Shown here in pieces: positions 1-14,654 of a stretch of DNA of 41,370 nucleotides. Location: positions 1 to 41,370 of the forward strand of contig CANGXD010000021.1 of the NCBI GenBank assembly GCA_947457545.1, in the 5' to 3' direction. The position numbers and the translations under genes were made by a program. This DNA comes from Gemmatimonadaceae bacterium. Lineage in GTDB: Bacteria > Gemmatimonadota > Gemmatimonadetes > Gemmatimonadales > Gemmatimonadaceae. Under the pieces are notes generated by a model that saw only the letters and a list, made by a program, of their open reading frames with translations, was not told the DNA's origin and searched no databases. Each line of letters begins with the position of its first letter. The stretch's first letter is position 1.

Positions 1-144
1 ATCACCTGCTGTTGTTTGGTCTCGTCCAAGACGTTGCTCATGACGGGAAACGTCCCTCTCGGAACGTCCCGCCGGGCTACGCCTCAGCTCGCCTGTGGTG
101 GCCGGTTTTCAGGTGTCCACTGGTGGCCGGATTTGGGTGTCCAC
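1..144. mobile_element. Probable IS21-family terminal end (partial)
   Basis: Two consecutive units of about 24 bp, at 97-120 and 122-144, share GGTGGCCGG, a short AT-rich spacer and GGTGTCCAC. Multiple terminal repeats that end in TGTCCA and carry GGCCGG blocks are typical of IS21-family ends; this is from memory of the family, not a search. Reading resumes into integrase coding sequence at about 150, so the end abuts a gene it has truncated. No istA or istB coding sequence is visible; the rest of the element would lie left of the window. Confidence 0.5.
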
Positions 145-1436
145 CGAGGGCCCTGCGGCCCGATCCTCCGAACGATGTGTTTCTATGGGACAAAGAGACG
201 AGGGGATTCGGCGTCAGGCTCAAGGCCAGCGGCTCGCGCTCGTTCGTGCTGTCGTACTACGCTCCCGGGCTACATCAGAAGCGCCGACGGCTGACGATCG
301 GCGCATACGGCCCATTCACGGTTGATGAGGCGCGGAAGAAAGCGATGGAGCTCTTGGCGCGCATCGCCAATGGCGAAGATCCCGCGATGAAGGCAGCGGA
401 CGATCGCCGGGCGGTTCGCGACGAAACGGTCGCAACACTCTTCCCACTGTACCTGCAGGACGGGATCGACCTTCGCCGCGCTCGCACCCTCGACAATTAC
501 GAGACACTCGGTCGACTTCACATTCTGCCAGCGCTCGGGCATCTCCCTGTGGCTCGGGTGACCAGCAAGGATGTGACGGACCTTCATCGCTCGATGCGGG
601 CGAATCCGACCAATGCGAACCGAGTCCTCCAGCTCATCAAGGCGTTCTTTTACTGGCTGGAGCGCCGCGAGCTGTTCAGGGGCGTCAATCCCGCCACTAA
701 GACCGAGCGATATCCAGAGAGGCTCCGAGAGCGGTTCCTGACGGTGGAGGAAACGGCGCGGCTCGGGGAGGCACTACGTATCGCTGAGACGCGGGGGCTC
801 CCCCCCGCCCCGCAACACCGAAAGCCAAGTGGAAGCAAGCGCGTTCGTAATCCCGGCATGTTTTCGGCCGAGGCACGCCCCGCCAACTCAACAGCAGTTG
901 CTGCTCTCCGCCTCCTGATCCTCACAGGATGGCGCGAAAAGGAAGCGCTTACCCTTCGCTGGGATGCCGTCAACTTCGACAACAGCACCGCGACGCTCGA
1001 AGACACCAAAGCCGGACGAAGCGTCCGCTCGCTATCCGCTACCGCTCTAGAGCTAATCGCCACGCAGCCTCGGGTTGCAGGCTCAGACTTCGTATTCCCC
1101 GGCAGGGTTGCGAGCAAGCCTCTACAGGAGATCCAGCGGCTTTGGTACGCCGTGCGCCATGCGTCCGGATTGGACGATGTCCGGCTACATGACCTTCGCC
1201 ACAGCGTGGCATCTACGGCAGCAGCGCAAGGCCACTCGCTCTACCTCATTGGCAAGTTGCTGGGCCACAAAGACCTTCGCAGCACGGCCCGCTATGCTCA
1301 CCTTGCGGATGATGCACGGAAGGCCATGGCCGACAGCGTCGGCGGGGCAATCAGCTCGGCACTCGCCACTAACGGACAAGTGAAAGCAGAACTAGACCAG
1401 AAGCTGCGAGCGAATCCTGTCCTGCGGCGCGCCTGA
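12..1436 (+). CDS. P4-type tyrosine recombinase/integrase, 5' end replaced
   Basis: This is a site-specific recombinase that would cut and rejoin attachment sites of the island. Genuine family sequence begins only at about nt 150 (ALRPDPPNDVFLWD), where the DUF4102-like arm-binding domain starts. The preceding 46 codons read through the IS21-like terminal repeats and are not integrase sequence. A SAM-like core-binding domain follows at about residues 130-225. The catalytic domain has Arg in LTGWREKEALTLRW (about residue 307), HDLRHS (about 393-398), LLGHKDL (about 416-422) and the nucleophile Tyr428 in ARYAHL. All core catalytic residues seem intact. The normal start codon and first roughly 10-15 residues appear lost, so expression now depends on the IS end or a fortuitous start. 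The family call is firm; activity is uncertain. Confidence 0.8.
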   Translation: MFGLVQDVAHDGKRPSRNVPPGYASARLWWPVFRCPLVAGFGCPPRALRPDPPNDVFLWDKETRGFGVRLKASGSRSFVLSYYAPGLHQKRRRLTIGAYGPFTVDEARKKAMELLARIANGEDPAMKAADDRRAVRDETVATLFPLYLQDGIDLRRARTLDNYETLGRLHILPALGHLPVARVTSKDVTDLHRSMRANPTNANRVLQLIKAFFYWLERRELFRGVNPATKTERYPERLRERFLTVEETARLGEALRIAETRGLPPAPQHRKPSGSKRVRNPGMFSAEARPANSTAVAALRLLILTGWREKEALTLRWDAVNFDNSTATLEDTKAGRSVRSLSATALELIATQPRVAGSDFVFPGRVASKPLQEIQRLWYAVRHASGLDDVRLHDLRHSVASTAAAQGHSLYLIGKLLGHKDLRSTARYAHLADDARKAMADSVGGAISSALATNGQVKAELDQKLRANPVLRRA

Positions 1437-1449
1437 CCTAGGTCGCAGG

Positions 1450-2358
1450 CTAACTCATCCATCCGACTGGCAGATAGAGCGCCCGAATACGGAGGTCGAG
1501 GGCGTCTGCCAGCTCTCGTTCGTCTTCCCAGGTGATGTGATTGTACTGGCGGGTGTCGAAATGAGCTCCACCGATCTGGTCCTTCCTGCAGGTCCAAATG
1601 ACCGGCCTTCCAAGACCAAGTGCGAAACCCGCCTCGAAATAGACTCCACCGCGGTGGTGGGTAAAGTCGGCAACTACCATCGCCGATCGCCGAATCTCTG
1701 CAATGATTCGATCATCGATCTTATCGTTGTGCTGCTCCGTATCCACTCGATGAGCACTGTAGTATCCGCTACGCTCAATGCCCGGCGCTACGCCGATCGT
1801 CCACGCGTCGTTCAAGCTCTGATCGAAGGACATCGCGACGAAGACCCGACGGGACTCGATCGGATTCCGCCGGAGCGCCTCTGCACGCTGCCAGCCTTCG
1901 ATGGTCAGAACTAACGAGTTCGGGCGCAGCAAGCCCAGCTCTTCCGCAAAGCGCAGAAGGCCCTCCACCTCGACGTGATCTCTCGCTTCGATAAGCGGCC
2001 AATCGAGATGCGAGTTGAACCGGATAACGCTCAAATAGTTTGTTCCAGCCCGGGATGCCAACAGCGATAGGAGTCGATCGATCTTCTCTCCTATCGTGGC
2101 AGGTGGTCTCGACTGCGCCAAAATCACCGGAACGGTTTCAGCGTCGAGAATGAGATGCTGGCGGCGCTCAGATGAAACGCGGGTAGCGTGACTCAGCCTG
2201 CTACGAAGATCGGCATCTTCCGACGGTAAGCCGATGAGAAACACGCGATCGACACTGTATCGACCGCAAGCCGGACATTGAACTCCCACCAAGTCACGAT
2301 GTACGTCATCGATGGGTGCTTCACTGCATTGCGCTGTACAGAGAGGGCAAGCTGGCAC
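1450..2358 (-). CDS. Zinc-ribbon protein with nucleoside-deoxyribosyltransferase/TIR-like domain
   Basis: The N-terminus has two CxxC knuckles (Cys4/Cys7 and Cys28/Cys31), a likely zinc ribbon. A middle helical region (about 60-165) is unrecognised. The C-terminal domain (about 170-290) has VFVAMSF (172-178), a basic/acidic DKIDD stretch (212-216) and VVADFTHHRGGVYFEAGFALG with Asp231 and Glu242. That layout matches the nucleoside 2-deoxyribosyltransferase fold, where the Glu is catalytic; related TIR-like domains act as NAD- or nucleotide-cleaving effectors in bacterial immunity. The start is GTG with AGGTG five bases upstream. It is the last gene of the hsdM-hsdS-hsdR-ORF168 run, 63 nt after ORF168, so it may be an effector or sensor companion of the restriction system. 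The biological role is inferred. Confidence 0.7.
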   Translation of the reverse strand: MPACPLCTAQCSEAPIDDVHRDLVGVQCPACGRYSVDRVFLIGLPSEDADLRSRLSHATRVSSERRQHLILDAETVPVILAQSRPPATIGEKIDRLLSLLASRAGTNYLSVIRFNSHLDWPLIEARDHVEVEGLLRFAEELGLLRPNSLVLTIEGWQRAEALRRNPIESRRVFVAMSFDQSLNDAWTIGVAPGIERSGYYSAHRVDTEQHNDKIDDRIIAEIRRSAMVVADFTHHRGGVYFEAGFALGLGRPVIWTCRKDQIGGAHFDTRQYNHITWEDERELADALDLRIRALYLPVGWMS

Positions 2359-2421
2359 AGTTCACCTACAAGAAGTGTCGTTGAGCATCGAAGTCGCGTG
2401 ATTAGGCAGCCGATCGCCCGG

Positions 2422-2928
2422 CTAGAAGCCAAGGCGGAACTGAGATGCGATATCGCCCGCCGTCGTTCCGATGGTGTCCCGTGCGACCGCATCGTAGTCT
2501 TCGGCCACCATCTCAATCTCTCGCACTACCGTCCCCTCACCTGTCAGACATTCGGCCACAGGGCTCCGCGTGAGTACTCCACTCCAGTACTGAGTGGCGC
2601 TACTTGTAATTGTGCTCTGATCGGGCCAGTCTCTGCGTGCTTGCCCTAGCCACGCCCAATCAACATGGAGAACCGACTGACTGGGTGAGACAGACACCTC
2701 GTAGAGTCTCTGAGCACGATCACGGGCAGCCCAACGCCGAGCATCCCTCTCCTGCACGAACAAGAACAACGCGCCACGCCGAGCAGGTGCCGACGATGGT
2801 CTGACTCGCTCAAAGATCTCCTCGACCTCTATCTCAGGCGGCTTCAGTGAGTCGAAGAACGCGACACTAGGCGTGACGATCGAACCGACCGGTCGCTCGA
2901 AAGGATCTACCCGATAGTAGTTCTGCAT
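2422..2928 (-). CDS. Unrecognised 168-aa protein in the type I R-M operon
   Basis: I do not recognise this protein. It begins 11 nt after the hsdR stop, with AGGA nine bases before its ATG, so it is almost surely co-transcribed with hsdMSR. It is soluble-looking with no signal peptide or membrane segment. The N-terminus (YYRVDPFERPVG), the stretch RRGALFLFVQERDARRWA (about 50-67) and LYEVSVSPSQSVLHVDWAWL (about 74-93) resemble, faintly, the DUF2441/ADP-ribosyltransferase-like pattern of a short strand, an F-x-E-like acidic turn and a Y-E-V strand. I give that low weight. Position between hsdR and the deoxyribosyltransferase-like gene suggests a defence role. Confidence 0.65.
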   Translation of the reverse strand: MQNYYRVDPFERPVGSIVTPSVAFFDSLKPPEIEVEEIFERVRPSSAPARRGALFLFVQERDARRWAARDRAQRLYEVSVSPSQSVLHVDWAWLGQARRDWPDQSTITSSATQYWSGVLTRSPVAECLTGEGTVVREIEMVAEDYDAVARDTIGTTAGDIASQFRLGF

Positions 2929-2939
2929 TTGGACTAATC

Positions 2940-5282
2940 CTAGGCGACTCGTTGACTTGAGTAGAGAAACTGCTGGAAGCCAGCAAAAACACGTCCGATT
3001 TCCTCAGCACGGCCGAGATCAGCGATCGCGTCAGCTATCGAGTTGTTGTAGCGAAGCCTGAGCAACGGTGTGAGCTTCTCCTGATCGAGCTCCTCCACCC
3101 CTTCCCGTACATAGTGCGACAACACAAAGTCGAGAAAGACCTTTTGCTTGCTGTTGAAATGGGTGCTAATGACCACCTTCGCCATGGCCGCCCGGTCCTG
3201 CCGAGTGACTGGGGGGAGTGCATAGGCCACGTGCGCCAAGACGTCGAAGAGATCGCTCCTCTCCGCGTCGATGATCTTCTGCATTTCGGCGAGCTGTTCA
3301 CGGCCGAAGCCCTTCTCGGCGAGCCCCTCCAACAGCTTCTTGCGGGTATCGGGCGCGCTCCAGATGGCCCGGAGCTCCGCCTCGTCTTTGAAGAACGCGG
3401 GCAGCTTCCCGAATAGCATCTCCAAGAACTGCTGTGCCGACATAGGCGTCCCGTCCGGGTGCCAGAAGCTGGTGGCGATCATATGCTGGATCGTCCGCTC
3501 CTTACCGTCGGCGAGCTTCACCTTGATGCGCTGTTGCTTGACCGGAGGTTCGCCCCCTCCGGGGGGATCGACCTCGTAGGGAGGCCCAGGCGGCTCTCCC
3601 CAGCCCTTCGGCTTCTTTGGCTCCTTGGGCTCCGGTTCAAGCGGCTCGCCATCCCACTCGGGATCACTGAAGTGGTGATGGGCCTTCACGAAGTCATAGA
3701 TCGTGAAGTAGTCCTTGCCGTCGTACAGCCGCGTGCCGCGCCCGATGATCTGTTTGAACTCGATCATGGAGTTGATGGGCCGCATCAGCACGATGTTGCG
3801 GATGTTCCGGGCGTCCACTCCAGTTGAGAGCTTCTGCGACGTGGTCAGTATGGTCGGGATAGACTTCTCGTTGTCCTGAAAGTCACGGAGGTGCTGCTCG
3901 CCGAGTGCGCCATCATTGGCCGTCACCCGCTGACAGTAGTTCGGATCGGTCGAGGCCTTCATCTGGTTGATGAGATCCCGCACGGCGAGTGCGTGATCCT
4001 GCGTGGCGCAGAACACCAGCGTCTTCTCCTGCTGGTTGATCTGGTCCATGAAGATCTTCACGCGGTGGGCTTCGCGCTCCTTGATCTCGATGATCTTGTT
4101 GAAGTCCCCTTCCGCGAACCGGTCCCCCGCCTCGATCTCCCCTTCGACGACGGTATCATCGGGTGTGTAGACGTACTCGTCGAGCGTCGTCGAGATCTGC
4201 TTGACCTTGAACGGGGTCAAAAAGCCATCGTTGATGCCGTCTTTCAGCGAGTAGACGTAGACCGGCTCCCCGAAATACGCATAGGTATCTGCGTTGTCCT
4301 GCCGCTTCGGGGTCGCCGTGAGGCCTAGTTGAACGGCTGGAGCGAAGTATTCGAGTATTCCGCGCCAGTTGCCCTCATCGTTCGCCCCGCCCCTATGGCA
4401 CTCGTCGATGATGATGAGATCGAAGAAGTCGGGCGGGTACGAGCCAAAATGCGGCGACCGGTTCCCGTCCGTCGGCTTTCCGCTCATGAACGTCTGAAAG
4501 ATCGTGAAGAACAGGCTGCCGTTCTTCGGAACCTTCCCCTTCTTCGCAATGTCGGCGGGATCAATGCGAACTAATGCGTCTTCGGGAAAGGCGGAGAACG
4601 CATTATACGCCTGATTGGCGAGGATATTCCGATCCGCGAGAAACAGGATACGCGGCCGACGCTCCGGCTCGCGGCTCAGATTCCACCGGCTCTGGAACAG
4701 CTTCCACGCGATCTGGAAGGCGATGAACGTCTTGCCGGTACCGGTCGCCAGCGTGAGCAGGATGCGCTGCTTCTCTTCGGCGATTGCCTGCAGGACGCGT
4801 TCGACGGCGATATCTTGGTAGTAGCGGCTTGGATGGGAACCGCCCTTGTCTTCGAACGGTACCTCGGCAAATCGATCTCGCCAGGCGTTCGCGACGGCGA
4901 ACGTGTGCGACCAGAGCTCCTCCGGAGTGGGGTAGCTGGTGATCGCCCCTTCCTTCCCTGTCTGCATGTCGATGGCGTAGATGCCCTGCCCGTTGGTCGC
5001 GTAAGCAAAACGCACCGCCATCTTGGTCGAGTAGTCCTTGGCCTGACCGACACCTGCGGTAAGTGGCTTACCCCACGCCTTCGCCTCTACCACGCCGAGC
5101 TTCTGGTTGCGATAGACAAGGACATAATCAGCCGACATCGCCTTGCCACGCCGCCCAAGTCCTTCGATGCGCCCGGGCGTTATCGCATACTCTCGCTGAA
5201 TCTTGCTGCCATCGACGACGCCCCACCCCGCCGCTTTCAGCGCAGGGTCGATGTGCTCGGCTCTGGTTTCGGCTTCGTTCAT
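2940..5282 (-). CDS. hsdR: Type I restriction enzyme, R (motor/nuclease) subunit
   Basis: HsdR gives the type I complex its ATP-driven DNA translocation and cleavage of unmodified DNA. The N-terminal nuclease domain shows the PD-(D/E)xK pattern with Asp52 and Glu66-x-Lys68 (GVVEAKAWG). The SF2 helicase motor has Walker A ATGTGKT (179-185), DECH box (293-296), motif III-like TATPKR (322-327) and a late IGRGTRL motif. A proline/glycine-rich linker separates the motor from the C-terminal helical domain that contacts the methylase. At 780 residues it is a normal length for the shorter HsdR class. It starts 7 nt after hsdS ends. No disabling mutation is visible. Confidence 0.95.
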   Translation of the reverse strand: MNEAETRAEHIDPALKAAGWGVVDGSKIQREYAITPGRIEGLGRRGKAMSADYVLVYRNQKLGVVEAKAWGKPLTAGVGQAKDYSTKMAVRFAYATNGQGIYAIDMQTGKEGAITSYPTPEELWSHTFAVANAWRDRFAEVPFEDKGGSHPSRYYQDIAVERVLQAIAEEKQRILLTLATGTGKTFIAFQIAWKLFQSRWNLSREPERRPRILFLADRNILANQAYNAFSAFPEDALVRIDPADIAKKGKVPKNGSLFFTIFQTFMSGKPTDGNRSPHFGSYPPDFFDLIIIDECHRGGANDEGNWRGILEYFAPAVQLGLTATPKRQDNADTYAYFGEPVYVYSLKDGINDGFLTPFKVKQISTTLDEYVYTPDDTVVEGEIEAGDRFAEGDFNKIIEIKEREAHRVKIFMDQINQQEKTLVFCATQDHALAVRDLINQMKASTDPNYCQRVTANDGALGEQHLRDFQDNEKSIPTILTTSQKLSTGVDARNIRNIVLMRPINSMIEFKQIIGRGTRLYDGKDYFTIYDFVKAHHHFSDPEWDGEPLEPEPKEPKKPKGWGEPPGPPYEVDPPGGGEPPVKQQRIKVKLADGKERTIQHMIATSFWHPDGTPMSAQQFLEMLFGKLPAFFKDEAELRAIWSAPDTRKKLLEGLAEKGFGREQLAEMQKIIDAERSDLFDVLAHVAYALPPVTRQDRAAMAKVVISTHFNSKQKVFLDFVLSHYVREGVEELDQEKLTPLLRLRYNNSIADAIADLGRAEEIGRVFAGFQQFLYSSQRVA

Positions 5283-5289
5283 CGACGGA

Positions 5290-6426
5290 TCACAGTTGGC
5301 CGCTGAATGCGTTGTGGAGTAGCGACATCTTTAGCGCCTCCAGCGCCGTGATCTTCTCCTCGAAGATGCTGGCAAGCTGTTCAGTTTCATCAAAAAACCG
5401 TTCAAGGTTCGCGACGATCTGCTGCTGCTCGACGAGTGAGGGCATTGCGATCTCAAAATCGCGGACTTGAGCTAGCGAAAGATTCTGCTGTGCAGCCCCA
5501 CCTCTAAACTGCTCGATCTGCTCCAGCACCACGCCGGTTTCGAGCGCCTTTAGCACGAATGCCCTCAACAATCCAGGATTGGGATTTAGTCGAATAATGG
5601 CCAGAGCCTGATTCGTGTTCGCAGGAAGAATGTCGTCCGTGACCAAGGCTGTACGTCCAAGCGCTCCTGCAATCGAAAAGAGAATGTCGCCAGCTGCGAG
5701 CTGAGAACGAGCAAGGTCAGCGTGACATTCAGGCGAGATATGCGCGAACTTCTCCCGAATGAATCGGCCCGTTTTCGTGATAGACTCAACTTTCACGAAG
5801 TTGATGCCGTCGTCGATGAATGCGTGGCCGACTGATGTTGGAGTCGTGCCTTTAGTCACCTTGTCAGCGAGGTCGCCGAGCCTCGCAACTGGCCAGTCAT
5901 GGCCCGTGAAAGCGGCATTGAGGTGGCTTTTGAAGAGGGCAGTCGTGTTCCGAAGGTTCTGTTCGGCGTTAGCCTTTGCGGTGGCGATGCCCTCGAACGC
6001 TTCGTCGAGGATGCGGACGATGCGTTGCTGTTGGGCAATTGGGGGGAACCCAATCTCCAGTTCCTTCAACTGCCGATAGTGCCTCGCGTAACCAAGCGAC
6101 TTGATTTCAACTGCCATCAACGCGTAGTAGAAGAAGCGCGGATCTAGGCAAGACTTCGGCTTAAGAATCTTGACGCCATCGGCACCAAGCACGAAGTCGA
6201 AGTCCACGTACTTCAGCGCTCTCGTATGATCGCCGAATAGGACCACCGGACCCTGAACGCGGAAAAGATCTGCACTGTTGTTCCAGTATCCGTTAACAAG
6301 TCCTTCTTCCTGAGACACGATAGGAAATGCACCGTTCTCCAAAAAGTCTCGACGCTGGATCCTGTTCGTGTATGTCACTCGTTCGATACAGTCCTCGAAC
6401 GGCCGACGCTCCCAGCCTCCGCTCAC
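5290..6426 (-). CDS. hsdS: Type I restriction-modification specificity subunit
   Basis: HsdS recognises the bipartite target sequence for both methylation and restriction. It has the classic two-repeat plan: target recognition domain 1 (about 1-125), the central conserved helix (AQQQRIVRILDEAFEGIATA, about 131-150), recognition domain 2 (about 178-330, starting WPVARLGDLADKV) and a second conserved helix (EQQQIVANLERFFDETEQLA) at the C-terminus. It starts with GTG overlapping the hsdM stop by 4 nt (GTGA), indicating translational coupling. Length (378 aa) is normal. The recognised DNA sequence cannot be predicted from inspection. Confidence 0.93.
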   Translation of the reverse strand: MSGGWERRPFEDCIERVTYTNRIQRRDFLENGAFPIVSQEEGLVNGYWNNSADLFRVQGPVVLFGDHTRALKYVDFDFVLGADGVKILKPKSCLDPRFFYYALMAVEIKSLGYARHYRQLKELEIGFPPIAQQQRIVRILDEAFEGIATAKANAEQNLRNTTALFKSHLNAAFTGHDWPVARLGDLADKVTKGTTPTSVGHAFIDDGINFVKVESITKTGRFIREKFAHISPECHADLARSQLAAGDILFSIAGALGRTALVTDDILPANTNQALAIIRLNPNPGLLRAFVLKALETGVVLEQIEQFRGGAAQQNLSLAQVRDFEIAMPSLVEQQQIVANLERFFDETEQLASIFEEKITALEALKMSLLHNAFSGQL

Positions 6427-7880
6427 AATAGCGCCCGAATACTGGCAAGAACATCCGCGCTCTCCGCATCGAGAACCACGATCTCATCCAAGATTTCCTC
6501 GGGGCTACGGTGCGTGACTACTTCGCCTCCGTTTGGATTCTTCAGCGACAAATCAAAGGTGGCCTGATCGACGTCCTGTACAGCGACCCTCCACGACTTC
6601 GGCGACTCGGCCTTTGACGCCTGTAGATCCACGAATTCTGCGAGGTCTGCATCGTTGAGCGGGTTCGTCTTTCCCATGCTGCGCCCAGGGTCGAGCTGGT
6701 AATACCAGATCTTCCGCGTCGGTGACCCCTTCTCAAAAAACAGCACCACTGTTTTCACACCAGCGCCGATGAAGGTGCCTCTAGGACAGTCAAGAATCGT
6801 GTGAAGATTGCAGCTCTCCAGCAGGCTCTTTCGGAGGCTTACCGAGGCATTGTCGGTGTTTGACAGGAAAGTGTTCTTGATGACCACCGCCCCGCGCCCT
6901 CCGGCCCTGAGCAGCTTGATGAAATGCTGCAGGAACAGGTATGCGGTCTCGCCCGTGCGAATGGGGAAGTTTTGCTGCACCTCCGGCCGCTCCTTCCCAC
7001 CAAAGGGGGGATTGGCCAGGACGATGTCGTAACGGTCCTTCTCCTGCACATCCGCGAGGTTCTTCGTGAGCGTGTTCGTGTGCAGGATGTTTGGCGCTTC
7101 GATGCCATGCAGGATCATGTTCATGATCGCGATGACGTAGGCGAGCGACTTCTTCTCCTTGCCGTAGAACGTTCGCTCCTGCAGCGTCCGGTCCTGCGCC
7201 GTGGTACGCTTGGGGTGCGTCGTCTTGAGGTAGTCGTACGCCTCGCACAAGAAGCCCGCTGAGCCACATGCACCGTCGTAGATTCGCTCGCCGATTTCCG
7301 GCTTCACCACCTGAATCATGGCACGAATGAGCGGACGCGGCGTGTAATACTCGCCGCCATTCCGCCCGGCATTGCCCATGTTCTTGATCTTGGCTTCGTA
7401 CAGGTGCGAGAGCTCATGCTTCTCGGCCTGCGAGCGGAAGCGGAGTTCGTCGACGTGATCGATGATCTCTCGGAGGTTGTAGCCGCTTTGGATCTTGTTT
7501 TTGATCTCGCCGAAGATCTCGCCGATCTTGTACTCGATCGTGTTCGGCCCACTGGCCCGCTGCTTGAAGGCGTGCAGGTACGGAATGAGCTTCCGGTCCA
7601 CGAAGTCACGCAGGTCGTCGCCCGTCAACGCCTTGTTGTGGTCGAGCTTCCCGTCCTTGCCCTTGGGAGCGGCCCAAACTTCCCATCGGTACGGCTGGTC
7701 GAGGATGTATGTGTACTTCTTCCCCTCCAGCGCCGCTTCGTCGGCCCGGTCCTGCTCAAGTCCGTCGAGGTACTTGAGGAAGAGCAGCCACGACGTCTGC
7801 TCAGTATAGTCGAGCTCGGTTGTGCACCCAGCCTCCTTCCAGAGCACGTCGTCGATATTTCTGAATGCTTGTTCAAACAT
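6423..7880 (-). CDS. hsdM: Type I restriction-modification methyltransferase subunit
   Basis: HsdM transfers a methyl group from S-adenosylmethionine to adenine N6 within the HsdS target. An N-terminal HsdM_N helical domain (about 5-130) precedes the SAM-dependent methylase fold. The SAM-binding motif is DGACGSAGF (202-210) and the catalytic motif IV is NPPF (290-293) in LANPPFGGKE. The gene is the first of a five-gene minus-strand run. No convincing Shine-Dalgarno or promoter was found upstream in 7881-8144. Confidence 0.95.
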   Translation of the reverse strand: MFEQAFRNIDDVLWKEAGCTTELDYTEQTSWLLFLKYLDGLEQDRADEAALEGKKYTYILDQPYRWEVWAAPKGKDGKLDHNKALTGDDLRDFVDRKLIPYLHAFKQRASGPNTIEYKIGEIFGEIKNKIQSGYNLREIIDHVDELRFRSQAEKHELSHLYEAKIKNMGNAGRNGGEYYTPRPLIRAMIQVVKPEIGERIYDGACGSAGFLCEAYDYLKTTHPKRTTAQDRTLQERTFYGKEKKSLAYVIAIMNMILHGIEAPNILHTNTLTKNLADVQEKDRYDIVLANPPFGGKERPEVQQNFPIRTGETAYLFLQHFIKLLRAGGRGAVVIKNTFLSNTDNASVSLRKSLLESCNLHTILDCPRGTFIGAGVKTVVLFFEKGSPTRKIWYYQLDPGRSMGKTNPLNDADLAEFVDLQASKAESPKSWRVAVQDVDQATFDLSLKNPNGGEVVTHRSPEEILDEIVVLDAESADVLASIRALL

Positions 7881-8144
7881 TGGGGTTGTCGCTCATTCTG
7901 GTGGTGACGGGTCAGCGGGACAGGTGCGGCTAGCGCAGGAACTCCGGGATATGATCGCCTCCAGCGGCCCGGGTCGGTAGGGAGGGGGGCCGATTCGGTT
8001 GCAGGTATCGCGACGGTTGGTCGAACCCAATTGACTTGCCCGTGCGGGTGGCGAAGCGTTCTAGGCTGGCGCGCTGGGCTGCCCGTCTTCACGATTACGA
8101 GGGCCATCCAGTTATCGCAATCCTGAGTCCGTATTGCTTGCCGG

Positions 8145-8501
8145 TTGAACTACTCATCGCCAGAGGTTCTCGTGCTCCATCCGTTTGCAATTGACGTCCT
8201 GTCTCGGGACAATGACAATATTGCTGGGGTCTCTTGGGGCTTCTCCATCTGGGTAGCATTGCGTAAGACGGGCCGCTACTCGGTTGGAGCTACCTGCACT
8301 ACGAACGAGCCACCCACTCCGCGATTCCGCATCCATTACCCGCTGAAAACTGGGGCAGAAGTCTGGGACGCCATCAATGATCTCTATTCGTCAATCGATG
8401 AGAACGAACCAGCGCTTGAGCTCGAGGATTGGCGAGAGGTGGTGAGCGTCCTTACAACGCACGACCCGTTGCTGGCAGCGCAAGTGTGGGACGCTGCCTA
8501 G
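8145..8501 (+). CDS. Hypothetical protein, divergent from hsdM
   Basis: I do not recognise this protein. It is a small (109-118 aa) acidic soluble sequence with regular alternating hydrophobicity (GFSIWVALRKTGRYSVGATC) and a helical C-terminus (WDAINDLYSSI, WREVVSVLTTHDPLLAAQVW), so it looks like a real folded protein. The longest frame begins at TTG 8145, but GTG at 8172 has AGAGG five bases upstream and is the better start. A 7-bp hairpin (8524-8541) follows the stop. It is transcribed divergently from hsdM and might be island cargo. Confidence 0.5.
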   Translation: MNYSSPEVLVLHPFAIDVLSRDNDNIAGVSWGFSIWVALRKTGRYSVGATCTTNEPPTPRFRIHYPLKTGAEVWDAINDLYSSIDENEPALELEDWREVVSVLTTHDPLLAAQVWDAA

Positions 8502-8523
8502 GCCGACCTGACGGAGGTTGAGC

Positions 8524-8541
8524 GGGATGCAGAAGCATCCC
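8524..8541 (+). terminator. Possible weak terminator hairpin after the 8145 gene
   Basis: GGGATGC, loop AGAA, GCATCCC form a 7-bp stem 22 nt past the stop codon. It is followed by a C-run and CTTCG rather than a U-tract, so intrinsic termination is doubtful. Confidence 0.3.
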
Positions 8542-9260
8542 CCCCTTCGTGAGGCTTACCGACTGCAACGGAATCGGCGGTGTCTCGTGCCGAACACCCA
8601 ACACTCCTAATGCGCGACGCCTCGACTACTTCTCAGAAATCCGAAGCCACGCCTGAGAAGTTTCCGAGCGATCAGCAGGTAGGGCGTGCGTCGCCCTGAA
8701 GGAAGCGCGCAGAGTGGTTGGCCGAGATGGAAGCCTTCAGCCTTTAAGTCGTCGCTCCGACAGCCGTTGGCAGAGCCACCGAAGGCGCTCAAGGCCTAGG
8801 GGGTCAATAATCGACCGGCGACGGGGCCGTGGCGCCGCTGGTGGACGACGATGGAAGCATCGCTGGCCCCCCAGAACCGGACAAGCTGGATGGAGAAAAG
8901 CACGTGAGTTCGAACGGTGCGTGGCCGACACGTGTCTCTCTAGCGGAATATCAACGCTTACCAGTTCGGACTGGTGGCCCCCTCTGCCCCATACGCGCTA
9001 CGACTGGCAGGTTCAAACAGCCACCCGGGGGCCAGCATCGAATGCACTGCTGTCTAGTTGGTGCTGCTCGCATAGGTCGAGGGCAGCGCTATACGATCCC
9101 CGTTTTGCACTCCGGCGGAGCGTGTAGGCTCACGGGGCCCGTCCGGTCGTTGCCTCTATTGACGCGATGAACTCACGGAGACCTGAAAAATTGGGTGAGC
9201 TGTGCGGCAGTGCTACCTCCGCGCCGTCAGCATGTGAGCGCGCACCTAACGGCGAGGAAA

Positions 9261-9316
9261 GGGAGTAAAGGGAGGAAAGGAATCTATCGTGCGGCTCGTT
9301 TCCTCCCTTTCCTCCC
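9261..9316. repeat. Purine/pyrimidine-rich inverted repeat (18-bp arms, 20-nt loop)
   Basis: The left arm 9261-9278 (GGGAGTAAAGGGAGGAAA) pairs with the right arm 9299-9316 at 17 of 18 positions. The left arm is all purine except one T, the right arm all pyrimidine, and each arm is built from GGGAGGAAA-like units. It lies 14 nt beyond the 3' end of the DUF3987 gene. There is no U-tract. It could be an RNA hairpin ending the replication operon or a DNA site such as an origin or nick site. Confidence 0.7.
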
Positions 9317-9330
9317 GTTGTGATCAGCGG

Positions 9331-10710
9331 TCACGCCTCGCGCTGAAGGTGTCGGGCGTGGGTCCAGCGTTCTTGCGGTCGTCCATTCGTAGCGCGCTTA
9401 GCCATGGACGCGAGTCCACTGCTAGAAAGTGCGCCGAGTGCTGCATCGATCTGTTTTGCACTCACGGCATTGCTACCCACGACTCCCTCTCGGATATCGC
9501 TACGGGAAAGTCCCATAGCCCCCGCACTCTCAAGCGCCACGAGCAGCCTTTCAGCCAGCGGAGAGCGCACCACCCCGTCCGCGTAGATGAATCGCCACGA
9601 GTCGGCAGCATAATGCCACACGGCTAAAGCGGCATCGAGATGACGAACCTCAATAACCGAAATACCGTCTAGCAGCGTGAGCAGCATGGCGAGACGCAGC
9701 ACGTAAGGTGCCCCACGTTCCAGCAGCGCCCGAATCACCGGGCTCGCGTCATCGACGACCGCGAGGCTTGGATATTCCACCTCCCAGCGATCCCTTGCTT
9801 CAGCACTGAGTACGACCTTTTCAATCCCGCTCGTTGCTGCAATGCTTTTGCGAATCGCAGCCACCACCTCAGACACGGCTTCAGGATCGGGTTCAGTGGG
9901 TTGTGCGAGTAGATGCGCGCGGGTGGACCAGATCGGGAGAAAGCGGTTCGCGAGGCCGTTCAGCACGGAAGCATGCCCCAGCAGCTTGCATAATTCAGAT
10001 TTGGTGATCGCCCCGACGATCGCGATATGCGGCGCCGTCGAGCACTGTGGATCACGCTTCACCATGCTGCGGAGGTCCATACCGTCCCATGCGTCCCGAA
10101 GAATGGCGCTCAAGCGATTCCCCTCGCGCGCCATCGCTTCCAGCGCGCCGCCCATTTCGCCTTCCTTGACCAACAGGCGCTTGTCGAGGACGCCGGGATC
10201 ACCGGCCCGTATCACCTTGCCCGAGTTCTCGTCTTTCGCCAACGGCGTGGGGTCACGGACCTCGGCGATCAATCCCTCAGCCGAAGACAGCCCGCTTACC
10301 ACTCTCGTCGCAGAAAAGTTGTCGTCAAGCAAGCGTGCGAGCCGACTCCCACCAACGCTGAGCGCCGTACCTTTGCGTCCCGCGCCCGTAGGACCCACGA
10401 GCAGCACAAAGACACGGGCGTGATGATCGGTGTTCCCGATGTTCATCCACGGGCCACGACCGATGATCGAGCCACACAACGCAAGCGCAGTCACGTAGAC
10501 ACTGACCGGTGCCGCTTCGGTATGGGGCGCCATGAGCCTCACGTACGCACCCACCGACCCATACAGATGCGCGGGATCAAAAGTCGGCGTCGTGATCGGC
10601 GAAGCGTTGACGGAATGTTCAACTGCTTCACGCTTAGACACCATGGACGGCGAGCGCGCGCGTTCCGCGTCGATTGGCGCCGTCGGTGGCTCCGGGGTTC
10701 GCGTCTTCAT
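9331..10710 (-). CDS. DUF3987-type replication ATPase of a mobile element
   Basis: DUF3987 proteins are P-loop ATPases found beside Prim-Pol primases in plasmids, prophages and integrative elements, where they are thought to act as replicative helicase or initiator. The phosphate-binding loop reads VGPTGAGRKGT (about 105-115), the GRKGT variant seen in this group. A downstream acidic segment (LLVKEGEMGGALEAM) and the helical LTLLDGISVIEVRHLDAALAVW region near the C-terminus are typical. A winged-helix-like tail follows. The start at 10710 makes an ATGA overlap with the primase stop; the open frame extends to 10797, but that extension overlaps the primase. 459 aa. Confidence 0.75.
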   Translation of the reverse strand: MKTRTPEPPTAPIDAERARSPSMVSKREAVEHSVNASPITTPTFDPAHLYGSVGAYVRLMAPHTEAAPVSVYVTALALCGSIIGRGPWMNIGNTDHHARVFVLLVGPTGAGRKGTALSVGGSRLARLLDDNFSATRVVSGLSSAEGLIAEVRDPTPLAKDENSGKVIRAGDPGVLDKRLLVKEGEMGGALEAMAREGNRLSAILRDAWDGMDLRSMVKRDPQCSTAPHIAIVGAITKSELCKLLGHASVLNGLANRFLPIWSTRAHLLAQPTEPDPEAVSEVVAAIRKSIAATSGIEKVVLSAEARDRWEVEYPSLAVVDDASPVIRALLERGAPYVLRLAMLLTLLDGISVIEVRHLDAALAVWHYAADSWRFIYADGVVRSPLAERLLVALESAGAMGLSRSDIREGVVGSNAVSAKQIDAALGALSSSGLASMAKRATNGRPQERWTHARHLQREA

Positions 10711-11633
10711 GAAGCCCGCCGTGCAGACCAGCCTGCAGACCGCGCATGATGGAATACCGACGCGAGTGTGATCGCCGTAGGGCGAAACGCAATCCACGCT
10801 GAGCGGTTAACCTGCTCGTCAAACTTGCGAGAGCCCGCCGACCAAGCGTCCCAGATACCACGCGCTGATGGGTGCCCCGTGTACTTCAACGCCAGTCCAA
10901 CGTCGCGCCATGTCTGGTAGTCGTCCGGATCGATGAACCGCAACGCATCGAGCGTGCAGACCGGGTCGAAGGTGTGAGCACGTGGTGCGCCTGAGGATCC
11001 ATTCGCCACCTTGGGCCCCAGGCGAGCCGCATCGAGTCGCCGGATCTCTTCCGCGATTACGAACGGCATGTCCGATAGCGCACAGTCGGCGGGCGAGCGG
11101 GCTTCGCACCACTCGTACACAATCCCCTTCGGATGGATGGAGGGCGGCGCGACGAACAGCCCGCGCCCCGTCTTCACTTCCAATCCCGCACCGATTTCAT
11201 CTTCAAACACGTTGCGCACCGGACGATCAGCGATGTCCACGGGCACGCGCACGATACGATTGATACCGCGACTTGAGCGATACGCCCAGGTGGGCGCCCA
11301 TGTCGCCGCCATACTTTCGATCCTCTCATTGGCCGACGGGGTGTCCCCCTCGATTAACCCGAGGCGTAGTACACCACCGAGCCGCACGCCGATGTTGGCG
11401 TCTGGCCACCGCTCCCACCAAGCGCTGACTTGTTCCGGATGTGTCGAGGCCCGATGGAATCCGCCGAGGGTACCGATCTCGGAGTCGGTGTCGCGTCCCT
11501 CTTTCCATAGCGTCCCGTCGTGCTTGAGCCGCCCGACCATTGCTCTCTTGGTGCGCGGTGCGCAAGGGAACACTGGGAGTCCGAACTCGCTCGATAGCGA
11601 CAGCGCCGCCCATCCTAAGGGTGAGAGGGTCAT
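10707..11633 (-). CDS. Prim-Pol primase/polymerase with PriCT-2 domain
   Basis: This protein would prime replication of the element. The Prim-Pol domain spans about 5-190: GLPVFPC near the N-terminus, IGVRLGG, the acidic site LIEGD (Glu95, Asp97), the SRGINRI segment (about 121-127) and GLEVKTGRGLFVAPPSIHP (150-168). A PriCT-2 domain (about 225-285; DPDDYQTWRDVGLALKYTG, GIWDAWSAGS) follows. The usual hDhD is IEGD here, and the usual His of SGGxHxY is Asn125, so the metal and nucleotide sites deviate. It overlaps the upstream PC4 gene and the downstream DUF3987 gene by ATGA junctions, so the three are translationally coupled. Confidence 0.8.
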   Translation of the reverse strand: MTLSPLGWAALSLSSEFGLPVFPCAPRTKRAMVGRLKHDGTLWKEGRDTDSEIGTLGGFHRASTHPEQVSAWWERWPDANIGVRLGGVLRLGLIEGDTPSANERIESMAATWAPTWAYRSSRGINRIVRVPVDIADRPVRNVFEDEIGAGLEVKTGRGLFVAPPSIHPKGIVYEWCEARSPADCALSDMPFVIAEEIRRLDAARLGPKVANGSSGAPRAHTFDPVCTLDALRFIDPDDYQTWRDVGLALKYTGHPSARGIWDAWSAGSRKFDEQVNRSAWIAFRPTAITLASVFHHARSAGWSARRAS

Positions 11634-11932
11634 CGGGTCCCCTCCTGCGCTTTGGAGAACACGTCCGCGCGATCAAGCGCCGCCGCTACGCCTTCCGCTA
11701 GGTCGGCGAGTTCGTTGCGACGAATCGCGAGGCCCTTGTCCTTGGTCGGCCACCATTGCCCGGACGTGTCACGCGTCCAGATGCGCAAACTCAGGAAGTG
11801 GCGGCCGTTGTACTCTGTCCACGTGATGCGGAGTTCCTCACGGTCGCCACGCAACGCCGTCGCGAGTCGCTCGCCCCTCTCGAAGGGTGCGGTGCGATGA
11901 GACGCGGCGGGAGTGGCGTTTCCGGCGCGCAC
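11630..11932 (-). CDS. PC4/Sub1-like single-stranded-DNA-binding protein
   Basis: The C-terminal 65 residues fit the PC4 (PF02229) pattern: strands ITWTEYNGRHFLSLRIWTRD, then a short turn, PTKDKGLAIRRNELADLAEGVAAAL. The family binds ssDNA as a dimer. Encoded just before the Prim-Pol primase with a 4-nt ATGA overlap, it is probably the ssDNA-binding partner of the replication module. The first 30 residues look disordered. No tail like that of bacterial SSB is present. Confidence 0.75.
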   Translation of the reverse strand: MRAGNATPAASHRTAPFERGERLATALRGDREELRITWTEYNGRHFLSLRIWTRDTSGQWWPTKDKGLAIRRNELADLAEGVAAALDRADVFSKAQEGTR

Positions 11933-11958
11933 CTGTTCGGCATGGGCGCGCAGATCGA

Positions 11959-12052
11959 TTGCGGGCTTGTTGATTCGCTCTTACATTTTTTATCAGGTGT
12001 AGGATGGTTTCGCCGCGCGCCCCGACTGAACCTCGGGGCGCGTGTGTTTTTC
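11959..12052 (+). ncRNA. Candidate short plus-strand RNA (promoter-like element to terminator)
   Basis: A strong terminator hairpin with no plus-strand gene in front of it ends a roughly 60-nt stretch. The stem is CGCGCCCCGA (12016-12025) pairing with TCGGGGCGCG (12033-12042), loop of 7, followed by TGTGTTTTT. Upstream, TTGCGG (11959-11964), a 17-bp spacer and TACATT (11982-11987) resemble a sigma-70 promoter, predicting a start near 11994. It lies antisense in the gap between the HTH and PC4 genes. A copy-control antisense RNA is one reading; this is inference. Confidence 0.35.
12016..12052 (+). terminator. Rho-independent terminator in the replication module
   Basis: A perfect 10-bp GC-rich stem with a 7-nt loop is followed by a T-rich tail on the plus strand. 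Genes on both sides run on the minus strand, so it does not end any called gene. Confidence 0.65.
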
Positions 12053-12061
12053 CTGAGTAAC

Positions 12062-12364
12062 TCAGCCCTTGCCCGGCCTGAGCACGTGCGTTGACGGGTC
12101 GCAAGTCGAACGACGACGCGTCAAGGATGACTGCCATTCGCGGAGGGCATCCTCCGGATAGCGCACGGAGGCGCCCACTCGCACAAAGGGGGGCCCGTCA
12201 CCCCTAATGCGCATTTTTGCGAGGGTGGAGCGTGCTGTTCCGGTCAAGTCCGCGACCTCCCGGTCCGACAAGAACTTTACGAGGTTGGCTGGAGCCGCAT
12301 TTTGCATAGTGAGTGGGCTAGGGAGACGAACAGGTCGCAGCGTAGGCGTTCCTTTCCGATCCAT
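12062..12364 (-). CDS. AlpA/excisionase-type helix-turn-helix protein
   Basis: A compact MerR/excisionase-like winged HTH covers FLSDREVADLTGTARSTLAK (about 30-50), and MRIRGDGPPFVRVGASVRYPEDALREW completes the wing and last helix. Proteins of this type regulate excision or replication of integrative elements. It is the first gene of the minus-strand replication module, 129 nt before the PC4 gene, and the closest element gene to tRNA-Gly. The start could be 12364 or Met20 at 12307; neither has a clear Shine-Dalgarno. Confidence 0.75.
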   Translation of the reverse strand: MDRKGTPTLRPVRLPSPLTMQNAAPANLVKFLSDREVADLTGTARSTLAKMRIRGDGPPFVRVGASVRYPEDALREWQSSLTRRRSTCDPSTHVLRPGKG

Positions 12365-12533
12365 CCGGTGACCCCCCCGTCCAGCGCAAGTCCCTGTTTC
12401 ACCTAGATTTCGTCACGATGGACGACAGCCTTTTTCTCGATGCCGGTCAGATGAGCGACTCGCCGATCTGAAGCCGAAACATCGTCGCGTGTATCCGAGC
12501 GGCGGCGACACCTTGGTCGCGAACCAGCGCAGA

Positions 12534-12597
12534 GAAACGGCGCCACAATAGGCGTTGGCCGCGCGAAACGGCGCCGAGTGGTTACCGGATGGTTACC
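12534..12597. repeat. Short direct repeats next to tRNA-Gly, possible integrase arm sites
   Basis: GAAACGGCGCC occurs at 12534-12544 and 12565-12575 (31-bp period), and GGTTACC at 12580-12586 and 12591-12597 (11-bp period, about one helical turn). They lie between the HTH gene and tRNA-Gly. Phased short repeats near a tRNA attachment site can be recombinase or excisionase arm sites. The function is not proven. Confidence 0.35.
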
Positions 12598-12623
12598 CAC
12601 TGGCTTTAGAGCACATCGAACGA

Positions 12624-12660
12624 ACAAAGCCCCGCAACGGAAACCGTTGCGGGGCTTTGT
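12624..12660 (-). terminator. Terminator of tRNA-Gly
   Basis: A perfect 17-bp inverted repeat with a 3-nt loop (ACAAAGCCCCGCAACGG / CCGTTGCGGGGCTTTGT) begins 11 nt past the tRNA 3' end. It is symmetric with A/T flanks and could act in both directions. Confidence 0.85.
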
Positions 12661-12670
12661 ATTACGTCAG

Positions 12671-12743
<73 letters not shown>

Positions 12744-12822
12744 GAAGTGGGCACCAGCGTCCCGGCACCCAACAGGTAGTCTAGCAACCCGCCAGAAGGC
12801 TCGAAAGGGGCGCCCGCAACAC

Positions 12823-14097: not shown

Positions 14098-14654
14098 GCG
14101 ACCCAGTGCGTGACTTCGGCCGCGGCGCGGCGCGCCTTGGGCTCGGGCACTTCGGCGGGGGTGCCCACCGTGAGCACGGCCACGATGCGCTCACCCTCGG
14201 GCACCCCCACCGCCGACCGCGCGGCGGGATCGTCCATGATCGCGCCCGAACGGATATGCGTGCCGAGTCCGAGTTCGACGGCGGCGAGGCAGAGGTTCTG
14301 CGTGGCCATCATCGTCGACGCGTAATCTTCTTCGCGAATTTCCGGGTTCTCATTGAGCGTCATCGCGACGATGACCATGCACGGCTGCGCGCGGTGTTCG
14401 TCGCTCGTCGCCTTGCGAATGGACTCGGCGTGCGCTTCGTCGGTGGCCTTCTTGGCCTTGCGGTTGCCGAGGGCGAGGCCGTAGCCGGCGCGCGCTTCGG
14501 GACCGAGGACGTAGAAGCGCCACGGATTGGTGAGGCGGTGGATTGGGGCCAGCGTGGCCGCCTGAATGATCTGCTCGAGCTCTTCGCGCGTGGGGGGGCG
14601 GTCGGTGAACTTGCGCACGGAGCGGCGCGCGGCAATGGCGTCGGTGATGTTCAT
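14094..14654 (-). CDS. Nitroreductase-family flavoprotein
   Basis: An FMN-dependent oxidoreductase. The start MNITDAIAARRSVRKFTDRPP shows the N-terminal RRSVRxF FMN-phosphate site; APIHRLTNPWRFYVL supplies further FMN contacts, and ASTMMATQNLCLAAVELGLGTHI (central) with GVPEGERIVAVLTVG is the usual C-terminal half. 186 aa. The open frame extends upstream to 14780, but homology-like sequence starts at ATG 14654. Substrate unknown. Co-transcribed with the MFS gene; divergent from the exonuclease gene 124 nt away. Confidence 0.88.
   Translation of the reverse strand: MNITDAIAARRSVRKFTDRPPTREELEQIIQAATLAPIHRLTNPWRFYVLGPEARAGYGLALGNRKAKKATDEAHAESIRKATSDEHRAQPCMVIVAMTLNENPEIREEDYASTMMATQNLCLAAVELGLGTHIRSGAIMDDPAARSAVGVPEGERIVAVLTVGTPAEVPEPKARRAAAEVTHWVA

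What the first reader, a model, noticed from the sequence alone, without database searches (positions are those of the whole stretch)
1450..7880. Type I R-M operon with an NDT/TIR-like zinc-ribbon companion
hsdM, hsdS and hsdR are followed in the same tight run by an unrecognised 168-aa protein and a protein combining two CxxC motifs with a nucleoside-deoxyribosyltransferase/TIR-like domain (Glu242 kept). This could be a composite defence system in which nucleotide- or NAD-depleting activity backs up restriction. The fold families are known; this pairing is what seems unusual.
Basis: partly seen in the sequence, partly recalled or inferred. Interest (0 to 1): 0.75.

Follow-up and report, generated by a model that had tools for sequence, protein, structure and literature searches.

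The report
Restriction operon carrying a suicide-type effector
On a mobile DNA element, an ordinary bacterial restriction-modification operon is followed by a rare small gene of unknown role and by a member of a widespread, little-studied protein family that looks like an infection sensor joined to an NAD- or nucleotide-cleaving enzyme; relatives of this gene seem to have joined restriction loci several separate times, so the pairing is not unique and deserves a direct test.

Summary
In detail: hsdM-hsdS-hsdR (EcoAI family), a 168-aa ORF and a 302-aa protein form one tight minus-strand run; two CxxC pairs and Glu242 are there. A five-gene system is not supported: ORF168 has one intact relative in the genomes searched, away from hsd genes, and the four closest hsdR relatives (71-78%) lack both extra genes in the DNA held. 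The run is cargo of a ~15-kb element in tRNA-Gly. The 302-aa protein belongs to a large family (523 confirmed loci): zinc-ribbon front module plus TIR/nucleoside-deoxyribosyltransferase-like domain. Two relatives carry DUF4145 (HEPN class) behind the same front module, so it looks like an abortive-infection sensor with exchangeable toxins. It has no fixed partner, but lies in or beside complete type I R-M loci in 7 of the 80 closest relatives (six phyla; about 0.25 expected from hsdM density in the window's phylum; no matched control), by several separate acquisitions. Most likely it is a self-sufficient NAD/nucleotide glycosidase that backs up restriction; a PrrC-like guard remains possible. 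New variant of a known kind. No structure could be predicted and no activity was tested.

The parts
6423..7880 (-). hsdM, type I DNA adenine methyltransferase subunit
   Evidence: PF02384 E 1.5e-61, PF12161 E 8.7e-9; PADLOC MTase_I 2e-162
5290..6426 (-). hsdS, specificity subunit (two Methylase_S stretches)
   Evidence: PF01420 E 9.1e-23; PADLOC Specificity_I 8.4e-56
2940..5282 (-). hsdR, restriction/translocase subunit, EcoAI family
   Evidence: NF046051 827 bits over cut-off 550; PF04851, PF08463
2422..2928 (-). ORF168, rare accessory gene of unknown fold, related to phrog_5663
   Evidence: no Pfam or NCBIfam match, PADLOC best E 0.057; phrog_5663 E 4.8e-6; one intact homologue in G238, 32% identity, E 1.8e-19; a relic with an in-frame stop in G040
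1450..2358 (-). 302-aa zinc-ribbon plus TIR/NDT-like protein (called TIR302 here)
   Evidence: PF05014 E 3.8e-6, below gathering score; PADLOC PDLC00733 E 5.1e-11; 65-member family alignment A3
1855..2358 (-). TIR302 residues 1-168: zinc-ribbon motif (C4, C7, C28, C31) and presumed sensor part; also found joined to DUF4145
   Evidence: HMM of this part matches L013 at 2.4e-17 and L014 at 1.7e-20; both carry DUF4145
1453..1854 (-). TIR302 residues 169-302: TIR/NDT-like domain
   Evidence: invariant D231, V239, Y240, E242, A243, G244, F267, D268, W277 in A3; aligns to Rcl/DNPH1 and NDT over the Glu motif
1633..1635 (-). codon of Glu242, the presumed catalytic glutamate
   Evidence: aligned with the Glu of Rcl (GVGYELG) and of NDT 2a0k (GTAFEVG); coordinate counted from the GTG start
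12..1436 (+). tyrosine integrase of the carrier element; the frame runs to the contig end, so its N-terminus is unsure; an IS21-type IstB gene lies next to it on contig C144
   Evidence: PF00589 E 9.8e-22, Arm-DNA-bind_3 from profile position 19; L201
9331..10797 (-). DUF3987 gene of the element
   Evidence: PF13148 E 7.2e-13
10707..11633 (-). Prim-Pol primase of the element
   Evidence: PF09250 E 4.1e-23, PF08707 E 6.5e-14
12669..12714 (.). 46-bp attachment repeat at the 3' end of tRNA-Gly (tRNA 12670-12743, minus strand); exact second copy at contig C144:2722-2767
1..12714 (.). the part of the ~15.3-kb integrative element that lies in this window
   Evidence: relatives G062 and G058 align only from 12666/12669 rightwards; C144 overlaps window 1-149 and continues past the 46-bp repeat into DNA adjacent to the tRNA in G058

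Best explanation
The locus is a standard type I (EcoAI-family) hsdMSR operon, carried with two accessory genes on a ~15-kb integrative element in tRNA-Gly. TIR302 is most likely a self-sufficient abortive-infection protein: its zinc-ribbon front module senses infection (inferred), and its TIR/NDT-like domain, through Glu242, then breaks an N-glycosidic bond of NAD+ or of (deoxy)nucleotides (inferred from family), stopping the cell before phage that escape restriction can spread. Its place behind hsdR gives co-expression and co-transfer with restriction: a second layer, not an obligate subunit (inferred). ORF168 is an unrelated, lineage-specific piece of mobile cargo. Shown: gene order, families, element and its empty site in a relative, module swap with DUF4145, recurrence beside R-M. 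Not shown: enzymatic activity, trigger, back-up role.
For: Family and residues: (PF05014 in 64 of 65 members at E<=0.01; CBASS TIR-effector model in 65 of 65 at E<=0.001). Module swap: three ORFs match the front module without the TIR/NDT part; two (L013, L014) end in DUF4145, the third (L089) has its two halves in different frames. DUF4145 is HEPN-class, and NDT and DUF4145 both occur behind AbiJ-type front modules (PMC3710099, passages). No fixed partner: 32 of 80 loci have no same-strand ORF of 80 aa or more within 120 bp, and in the other 48 the neighbours vary. R-M context: complete M, S and R in 7 of 80 genome loci (L031, L040, L053, L058, L086, L088, L092), same-strand and within 120 bp in 4 (L031, L053, L058, L092); about 0.25 HsdM expected in 1.15 Mb of flanks at 0.2 per Mb. 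Separate acquisitions: 7 changes for 8 R-M rows, at least 6 forced by well-supported branches. Mobile carrier. hsdMSR without the extras in close relatives.
Against: PF05014 falls just under its cut-off for the window protein, and no solved structure matches by sequence better than E 0.0084. The HsdM density comes from the window's phylum only, uses an assumed mean genome size of 3.85 Mb and ignores clustering of defence genes: at ten times that density 7 or more loci has P 0.016; no matched control family was run. 73 of 80 relatives have no complete type I R-M in the DNA held, though many loci are short (both flanks over 4 kb in 45 of 80, 5 of them R-M). The motif round E242 was itself the search pattern for the genome and viral loci, so its presence there is not independent; it also holds in the five plasmid relatives of A1, found by tblastn. 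The R-M label is not significantly clustered on the tree (81 of 500 shuffles as low). One search's neighbours are mechanical ORFs, some spurious.
Confidence: 0.6

Rival explanations
1. PrrC-like guard: TIR302 binds the Hsd complex, is kept latent by it, and is released when a phage or plasmid anti-restriction protein disables restriction.
For: PrrC is embedded in a type IC hsd operon, sequestered in the enzyme and released when T4 infects (PMC3874165 and PMC2610378, passages). TIR302 relatives sit between hsdM and hsdS (L031) or between hsdS and hsdR (L053, with one 588-aa gene before hsdR, and L092). Repeated separate acquisition and excess over hsdM density.
Against: 73 of 80 relatives have no complete type I R-M in the DNA held, so the protein cannot generally need an Hsd partner in cis; R-M-linked members do not form one clade and lie beside HsdR proteins of different length. 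Five other HsdM_N loci in the same genome, but only one TIR302. No physical evidence.
Confidence: 0.2
2. Chance packing: defence genes accumulate behind the integrase of mobile elements and the R-M neighbour has no functional meaning. (This concerns the pairing only; TIR302 could still be a stand-alone effector, so it overlaps with the best explanation.)
For: The cluster lies in an integrative element; close hsdMSR relatives lack it, and G330 has a RAMA protein (GIY-YIG match just under its cut-off) and other genes behind hsdR; ORF168 was seen beside hsd nowhere else.
Against: 7 loci against 0.25 expected from R-M density; same-strand tight placement in 4 of 80 loci. In the neighbour clustering, HsdS and HsdR clusters (6 bacterial loci each) were the most frequent that I recognised as defence, level with a sensor-kinase-like cluster (6, named by eye); clusters were not annotated systematically.
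Confidence: 0.35
3. ORF168 and TIR302 form a functional pair, such as effector and immunity or sensor, inserted together behind hsdR.
For: Adjacent, same strand, 63-nt gap; possible ribosome-binding sites before both.
Against: The intact ORF168 relative in G238 and the relic in G040 have no TIR302 relative listed nearby, and no ORF168 was found in the other loci of the TIR302 family (L003-L128, phmmer E<=1e-3).
Confidence: 0.12
4. The C-terminal domain is an ordinary nucleotide-salvage NDT/DNPH1-type enzyme unrelated to defence.
For: The closest curated and solved matches are PF05014, Rcl/DNPH1 and NDT.
Against: Joined zinc-ribbon front module, shared with DUF4145 proteins; relatives in viral contigs and plasmids; match of all 65 members to a CBASS effector model.
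Confidence: 0.08

Closest known systems
EcoprrI/PrrC (type IC R-M with embedded anticodon nuclease)
   Same: Suicide-type effector encoded in a type I hsd operon; some relatives of TIR302 lie between hsdM and hsdS or between hsdS and hsdR
   Different: PrrC is an anticodon nuclease with an ABC NTPase domain, invariably linked to type IC R-M according to PMC2610378 (passages); TIR302 is a zinc-ribbon TIR/NDT-like protein, mostly not R-M-linked, behind an EcoAI-family operon
Immunity-suicide coupling in R-M loci (Makarova et al. 2012, PMC3506569, passages)
   Same: The general idea of toxin domains carried by R-M loci and displacing one another
   Different: The passage names HEPN, Sir2, ParB and REase domains; 'TIR' and 'deoxyribosyltransferase' do not occur in the main text
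AbiJ-NTD-type proteins (PMC3710099, passages)
   Same: Front module followed by exchangeable toxin domains, including nucleoside 2-deoxyribosyltransferase and DUF4145
   Different: The front module here is a CxxC zinc-ribbon motif plus an uncharacterised part; Pfam gave no significant match for it in the window protein
CBASS TIR effectors (PADLOC PDLC00733)
   Same: C-terminal domain matches in all 65 members scanned
   Different: The match covers only the C-terminal part (186-285 of the window protein); none of the five genes is a CD-NTase
Swarozyc / DUF4062 TIR-like NADases (PMC13174449, preprint, passages)
   Same: TIR-like domain distantly similar to TIR and NDT, with an auxiliary sensing domain, acting in abortive infection
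   Different: PF13271 matched 1 of 65 family members and not the window protein

Membership tests
Type I restriction-modification, EcoAI family | hsdM, hsdS and hsdR with the proper domains, one operon | tested here: met
   NF046051 827 bits over cut-off 550
Type I restriction-modification, EcoAI family | restriction and methylation activity | not testable with these tools
   needs expression
PrrC-type guard effector | gene embedded in a type I hsd operon | tested here: inconclusive
   in the window it follows hsdR and ORF168; inside the hsd operon in L031, L053 and L092
PrrC-type guard effector | ABC-NTPase plus anticodon-nuclease protein | tested here: not met
   no such Pfam match to TIR302 or ORF168
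PrrC-type guard effector | silenced by Hsd and released by an anti-restriction factor | not testable with these tools
   needs co-purification and phage assays
Nucleoside 2-deoxyribosyltransferase (PF05014) | score over the gathering cut-off | tested here: not met
   27.5 against 28.8 bits for the window protein; 64 of 65 members match at E<=0.01, cut-offs of the others not shown
Nucleoside 2-deoxyribosyltransferase (PF05014) | conserved Glu in the motif that holds the active-site glutamate | tested here: met
   E242 in GVYFEAG aligns to the Glu of Rcl and NDT
TIR domain NADase | match to a curated TIR family model | tested here: inconclusive
   no Pfam TIR model for the window protein; CAP12-PCTIR_TIR in 1 of 65; PADLOC CBASS TIR effector in 65 of 65
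TIR domain NADase | TIR fold and NAD+ hydrolysis | not testable with these tools
CBASS | CD-NTase cyclase beside the effector | tested here: not met
   none among the eight window proteins scanned with Pfam, the flanking genes included; the rest of the window was not scanned
DUF4062 / Swarozyc | PF13271 domain | tested here: not met
   no match in the window protein
   neither gene in 20 hsdR regions of 16 other genomes; no ORF168 outside the window's own DNA in the loci held

The most novel reading that the evidence does not exclude
Zinc-ribbon TIR/NDT glycosidases are a recurrent, independently acquired guard layer of type I R-M systems (seen in or beside R-M loci in six phyla, tight and same-strand in three): the Hsd complex holds them silent, and its inactivation by phage anti-restriction proteins frees them to destroy NAD+ or nucleotides, a PrrC-like logic with a different chemistry.
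Probability: 0.2. Interest if true: 0.75.

Novelty: new variant of a known kind. Interest (0 to 1): 0.5.

Why it matters
Coupling of restriction to cell suicide has one well-worked example, PrrC. A second effector class, with a TIR/NDT-like domain in place of an anticodon nuclease and separately recruited to hsd loci in several phyla, would make that coupling testable as a general rule and would give a function to a family with hundreds of loci. The front module shared with a second, unrelated toxin domain also points to a common, unknown trigger.

Tried and rejected
Fold searches were therefore not run.

ORF168: Pfam, NCBIfam, PADLOC, PDB sequences (best E 0.45), phage records with it and with its G238 homologue, plasmids and viral contigs with the protein and with a two-row alignment gave no convincing relative; a Rhodococcus plasmid matches the G238 homologue weakly (E 2e-3). 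Of the 12 of 394 genomes at E<=0.01 only the window's own and G238 convince; the rest look like noise, except the G040 relic, which returned at 4.7e-10 with a profile. phrog_5663 itself was found in 1 of 295 genomes of the class, G238. By eye ORF168 recalls ADP-ribosyltransferase-like proteins; this is recalled, came from no call and could not be tested.

Retron-Eco1-type NDT effector: considered from memory; neither PADLOC nor the PDB sequence search returned it, and the papers were seen as a listing only.

One R-M-dedicated TIR302 lineage: rejected, 7 changes for 8 rows. A wHTH in the middle of TIR302: only E 0.18, not claimed.

Rows dropped: one search kept the best 80 of 523 confirmed loci, so each count out of 80 is a best-hit sample. 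A3 left out 49 of 113 loci (chose 66 by CxxC near the start, length and removal of near-copies; 64 of these were aligned with the window protein). The tree used 103 of 119 rows, leaving out near-copies and short rows. Large N6-methylase matches in L032, L050, L072, L076 and L094 were not counted as type I R-M because no HsdS or HsdR was found there. L007 (an HsdR match beside a distant TIR-like protein) is not among the 80.
Full report
OBSERVATION. The five genes exist at the stated places on the minus strand, with gaps of -4, 7, 11 and 63 nt. HsdR is of the EcoAI family (NF046051, 827 bits, cut-off 550); HsdM and HsdS match their Pfam families strongly. The 302-aa protein (TIR302) has the two CxxC pairs and Glu242. 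ORF168 is notable in length but not beyond what shuffled sequence can give; its reality rests on one homologue (G238, 32% identity, E 1.8e-19).

WHERE IT SITS. In the two same-genus genomes that match best, the window's DNA from 11900 to 14100 aligns only from 12666 (G062, 95%) and 12669 (G058, 94%) rightwards, that is from the 3' end of a tRNA-Gly gene. Contig C144 of the same genome overlaps the first 149 bases of the window exactly, carries an IS21-type IstB gene and an exact 46-bp copy of the tRNA end, and then continues into DNA that in G058 lies directly beside the unbroken tRNA. So the cluster is cargo of an integrative element of about 15.3 kb with integrase, Prim-Pol, DUF3987 and a PC4-like protein. 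The tRNA end is also repeated 1.5 to 13 kb from the tRNA in G055, G069 and G070, which suggests other insertions there; the stretches read (L201-L208) hold none of the five genes.

THE OPERON WITHOUT THE EXTRAS. A search of 295 genomes of the class found hsdR relatives at E<=1e-80 in 17 genomes, the window's own included. I read 20 regions from the 16 others, several cut by contig ends. None contains ORF168 or a TIR302 relative by tblastn, nor a TIR302 relative by profile. G191 (78% identity) has complete hsdM-hsdS-hsdR; G382 (74%) has hsdS and hsdR, with hsdM running to the edge of the stretch and about 2.4 kb of DNA behind hsdR; G368 (71%) starts inside hsdR; G330 (75%, on two contigs) has a RAMA protein and other genes behind hsdR. 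The slot behind hsdR therefore varies.

ORF168. No relative in Pfam, NCBIfam, plasmids or phage records; phrog_5663 at 4.8e-6. Within the window's family it is in 1 of 179 genomes, its own. Among 394 genomes of the class there is one convincing relative, G238, in a stretch with an OLD-type ATPase and a UvrD-like helicase; I saw no hsd gene there. A profile of the two, run on 395 genomes of the phylum, found one more, a relic with an in-frame stop in G040, also without an hsd gene in the listing round it. It is best read as rare mobile cargo.

TIR302 AND ITS FAMILY. A profile scan of one genome per species (84,980 species) gave 552 stretches with the motif, 523 confirmed relatives, best 80 kept; these 80 carry about twenty phylum labels. 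There are 33 loci in viral contigs and 17 plasmid records, most of them partial matches. In the 65-member alignment C4, C7, C28, C31, D231 and E242 are invariant. The motif round E242 was the search pattern for genome and viral loci, but the five plasmid relatives of alignment A1, found by tblastn, also keep it. PF05014 matches 64 of 65 and a CBASS TIR-effector model 65 of 65; in the PDB the best sequence matches are Rcl/DNPH1 (E 0.0084) and a nucleoside deoxyribosyltransferase (0.042), aligned over the Glu motif and neither strong. A profile of residues 1-168 also matches two Rhizobium/Paracoccus plasmid proteins (2.4e-17 and 1.7e-20) that end in DUF4145 instead. DUF4145 is described as HEPN-class, and NDT and DUF4145 are both described behind AbiJ-type front modules (PMC3710099, passages). 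The plain reading is a sensor with exchangeable toxin ends.

HOW OFTEN WITH R-M. In the 80 genome loci complete hsdM, hsdS and hsdR were found in 7 (L031 Bacteroidota, L040 Clostridia, L053 and L092 Elusimicrobia, L058 Omnitrophota, L086 Gammaproteobacteria, L088 Gemmatimonadota). In four the gene is same-strand and within 120 bp of the next: between hsdM and hsdS (L031), between hsdS and hsdR (L092; L053, with one more gene before hsdR), or behind hsdR (L058). In L040 and L086 other genes intervene, and in L088 it converges on hsdR. HsdM_N has 78 matches in 101 genomes of the window's phylum (47 genomes with any), about 0.2 per Mb with an assumed mean genome size of 3.85 Mb, so about 0.25 would be expected in the 1.15 Mb of flanks. 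Poisson P for 7 or more is 1e-8 at that density, 4e-4 at five times it and 0.016 at ten times it. The excess is well above R-M density but could still reflect general clustering of defence genes; I had no matched control family. On a 103-row tree the 8 R-M-linked members (the window's included) need 7 label changes, at least 6 forced by supported branches; the label is not significantly clustered (81 of 500 shuffles as low): many separate associations, not one dedicated lineage. In the window's own genome six HsdM_N loci exist and only one TIR302. In its family 6 of 179 genomes match TIR302 at E<=1e-3, of which only the own gene and a fragment with an in-frame stop in G084 are close.

MECHANISM. 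Most likely a single-protein abortive-infection device: sensor in front, glycosidase behind, acting on NAD+ or nucleotides. Related logic is reported for DUF4062 TIR-like NADases, where an auxiliary domain binds a phage portal and the TIR-like domain then hydrolyses NAD+ (PMC13174449, preprint, passages). The guard reading follows PrrC, which is embedded in the EcoprrI operon and released when T4 infects (PMC3874165 and PMC2610378, passages). Makarova et al. 2012 proposed such coupling for many R-M systems and name HEPN, Sir2, ParB and REase domains; 'TIR' and 'deoxyribosyltransferase' do not occur in that paper's main text (PMC3506569, passages). My ten paper searches listed no report that I could recognise as a zinc-ribbon TIR/NDT protein in hsd operons. 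Apart from the five papers named here, read in passages, I saw listings only; one search matched 1,908 papers and listed 6; and the library lacks most subscription journals. This is weak evidence of novelty.

VERDICT. Observation confirmed; composite five-gene system not supported; TIR302 as an R-M-associated, repeatedly recruited effector supported as a pattern, its function untested. The confidences of the rival readings overlap, because chance packing speaks of the pairing and not of what TIR302 is. New variant of a known kind, interest 0.5.

Noticed in passing
window 1-12714 with contig C144 (L201) 1-2767: Integrative element of about 15.3 kb in tRNA-Gly with exact 46-bp repeats at both ends; an IS21-type IstB gene lies beside the integrase, whose N-terminal end is unsure.
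   Followed up: partly
L204, L205, L206 (G055, G070, G069): The same tRNA-Gly has extra 44-46-bp copies of its 3' end 1.5-13 kb away in other genomes of the genus, so it looks like an insertion hotspot.
   Followed up: partly
L013:10037-11233 and L014:10121-11236: The TIR302 front module is joined to DUF4145 in Rhizobium and Paracoccus plasmid proteins: an effector swap.
   Followed up: partly
L140:4690-10898 (G238): The only intact ORF168 relative lies in a stretch with an OLD-type ATPase and a UvrD-like helicase (a Gabija-like pair by recalled resemblance) and a DUF6946 gene.
   Followed up: no
genome G000, contigs C80, C25, C52, C42, C65: Five further HsdM_N matches in the same 4.6-Mb genome; six in all, the most of the 101 genomes searched.
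   Followed up: no
L053:7805-8758: A Schlafen/AlbA_2-domain gene sits in the Elusimicrobia hsd run just before hsdS, another accessory gene in such an operon.
   Followed up: no
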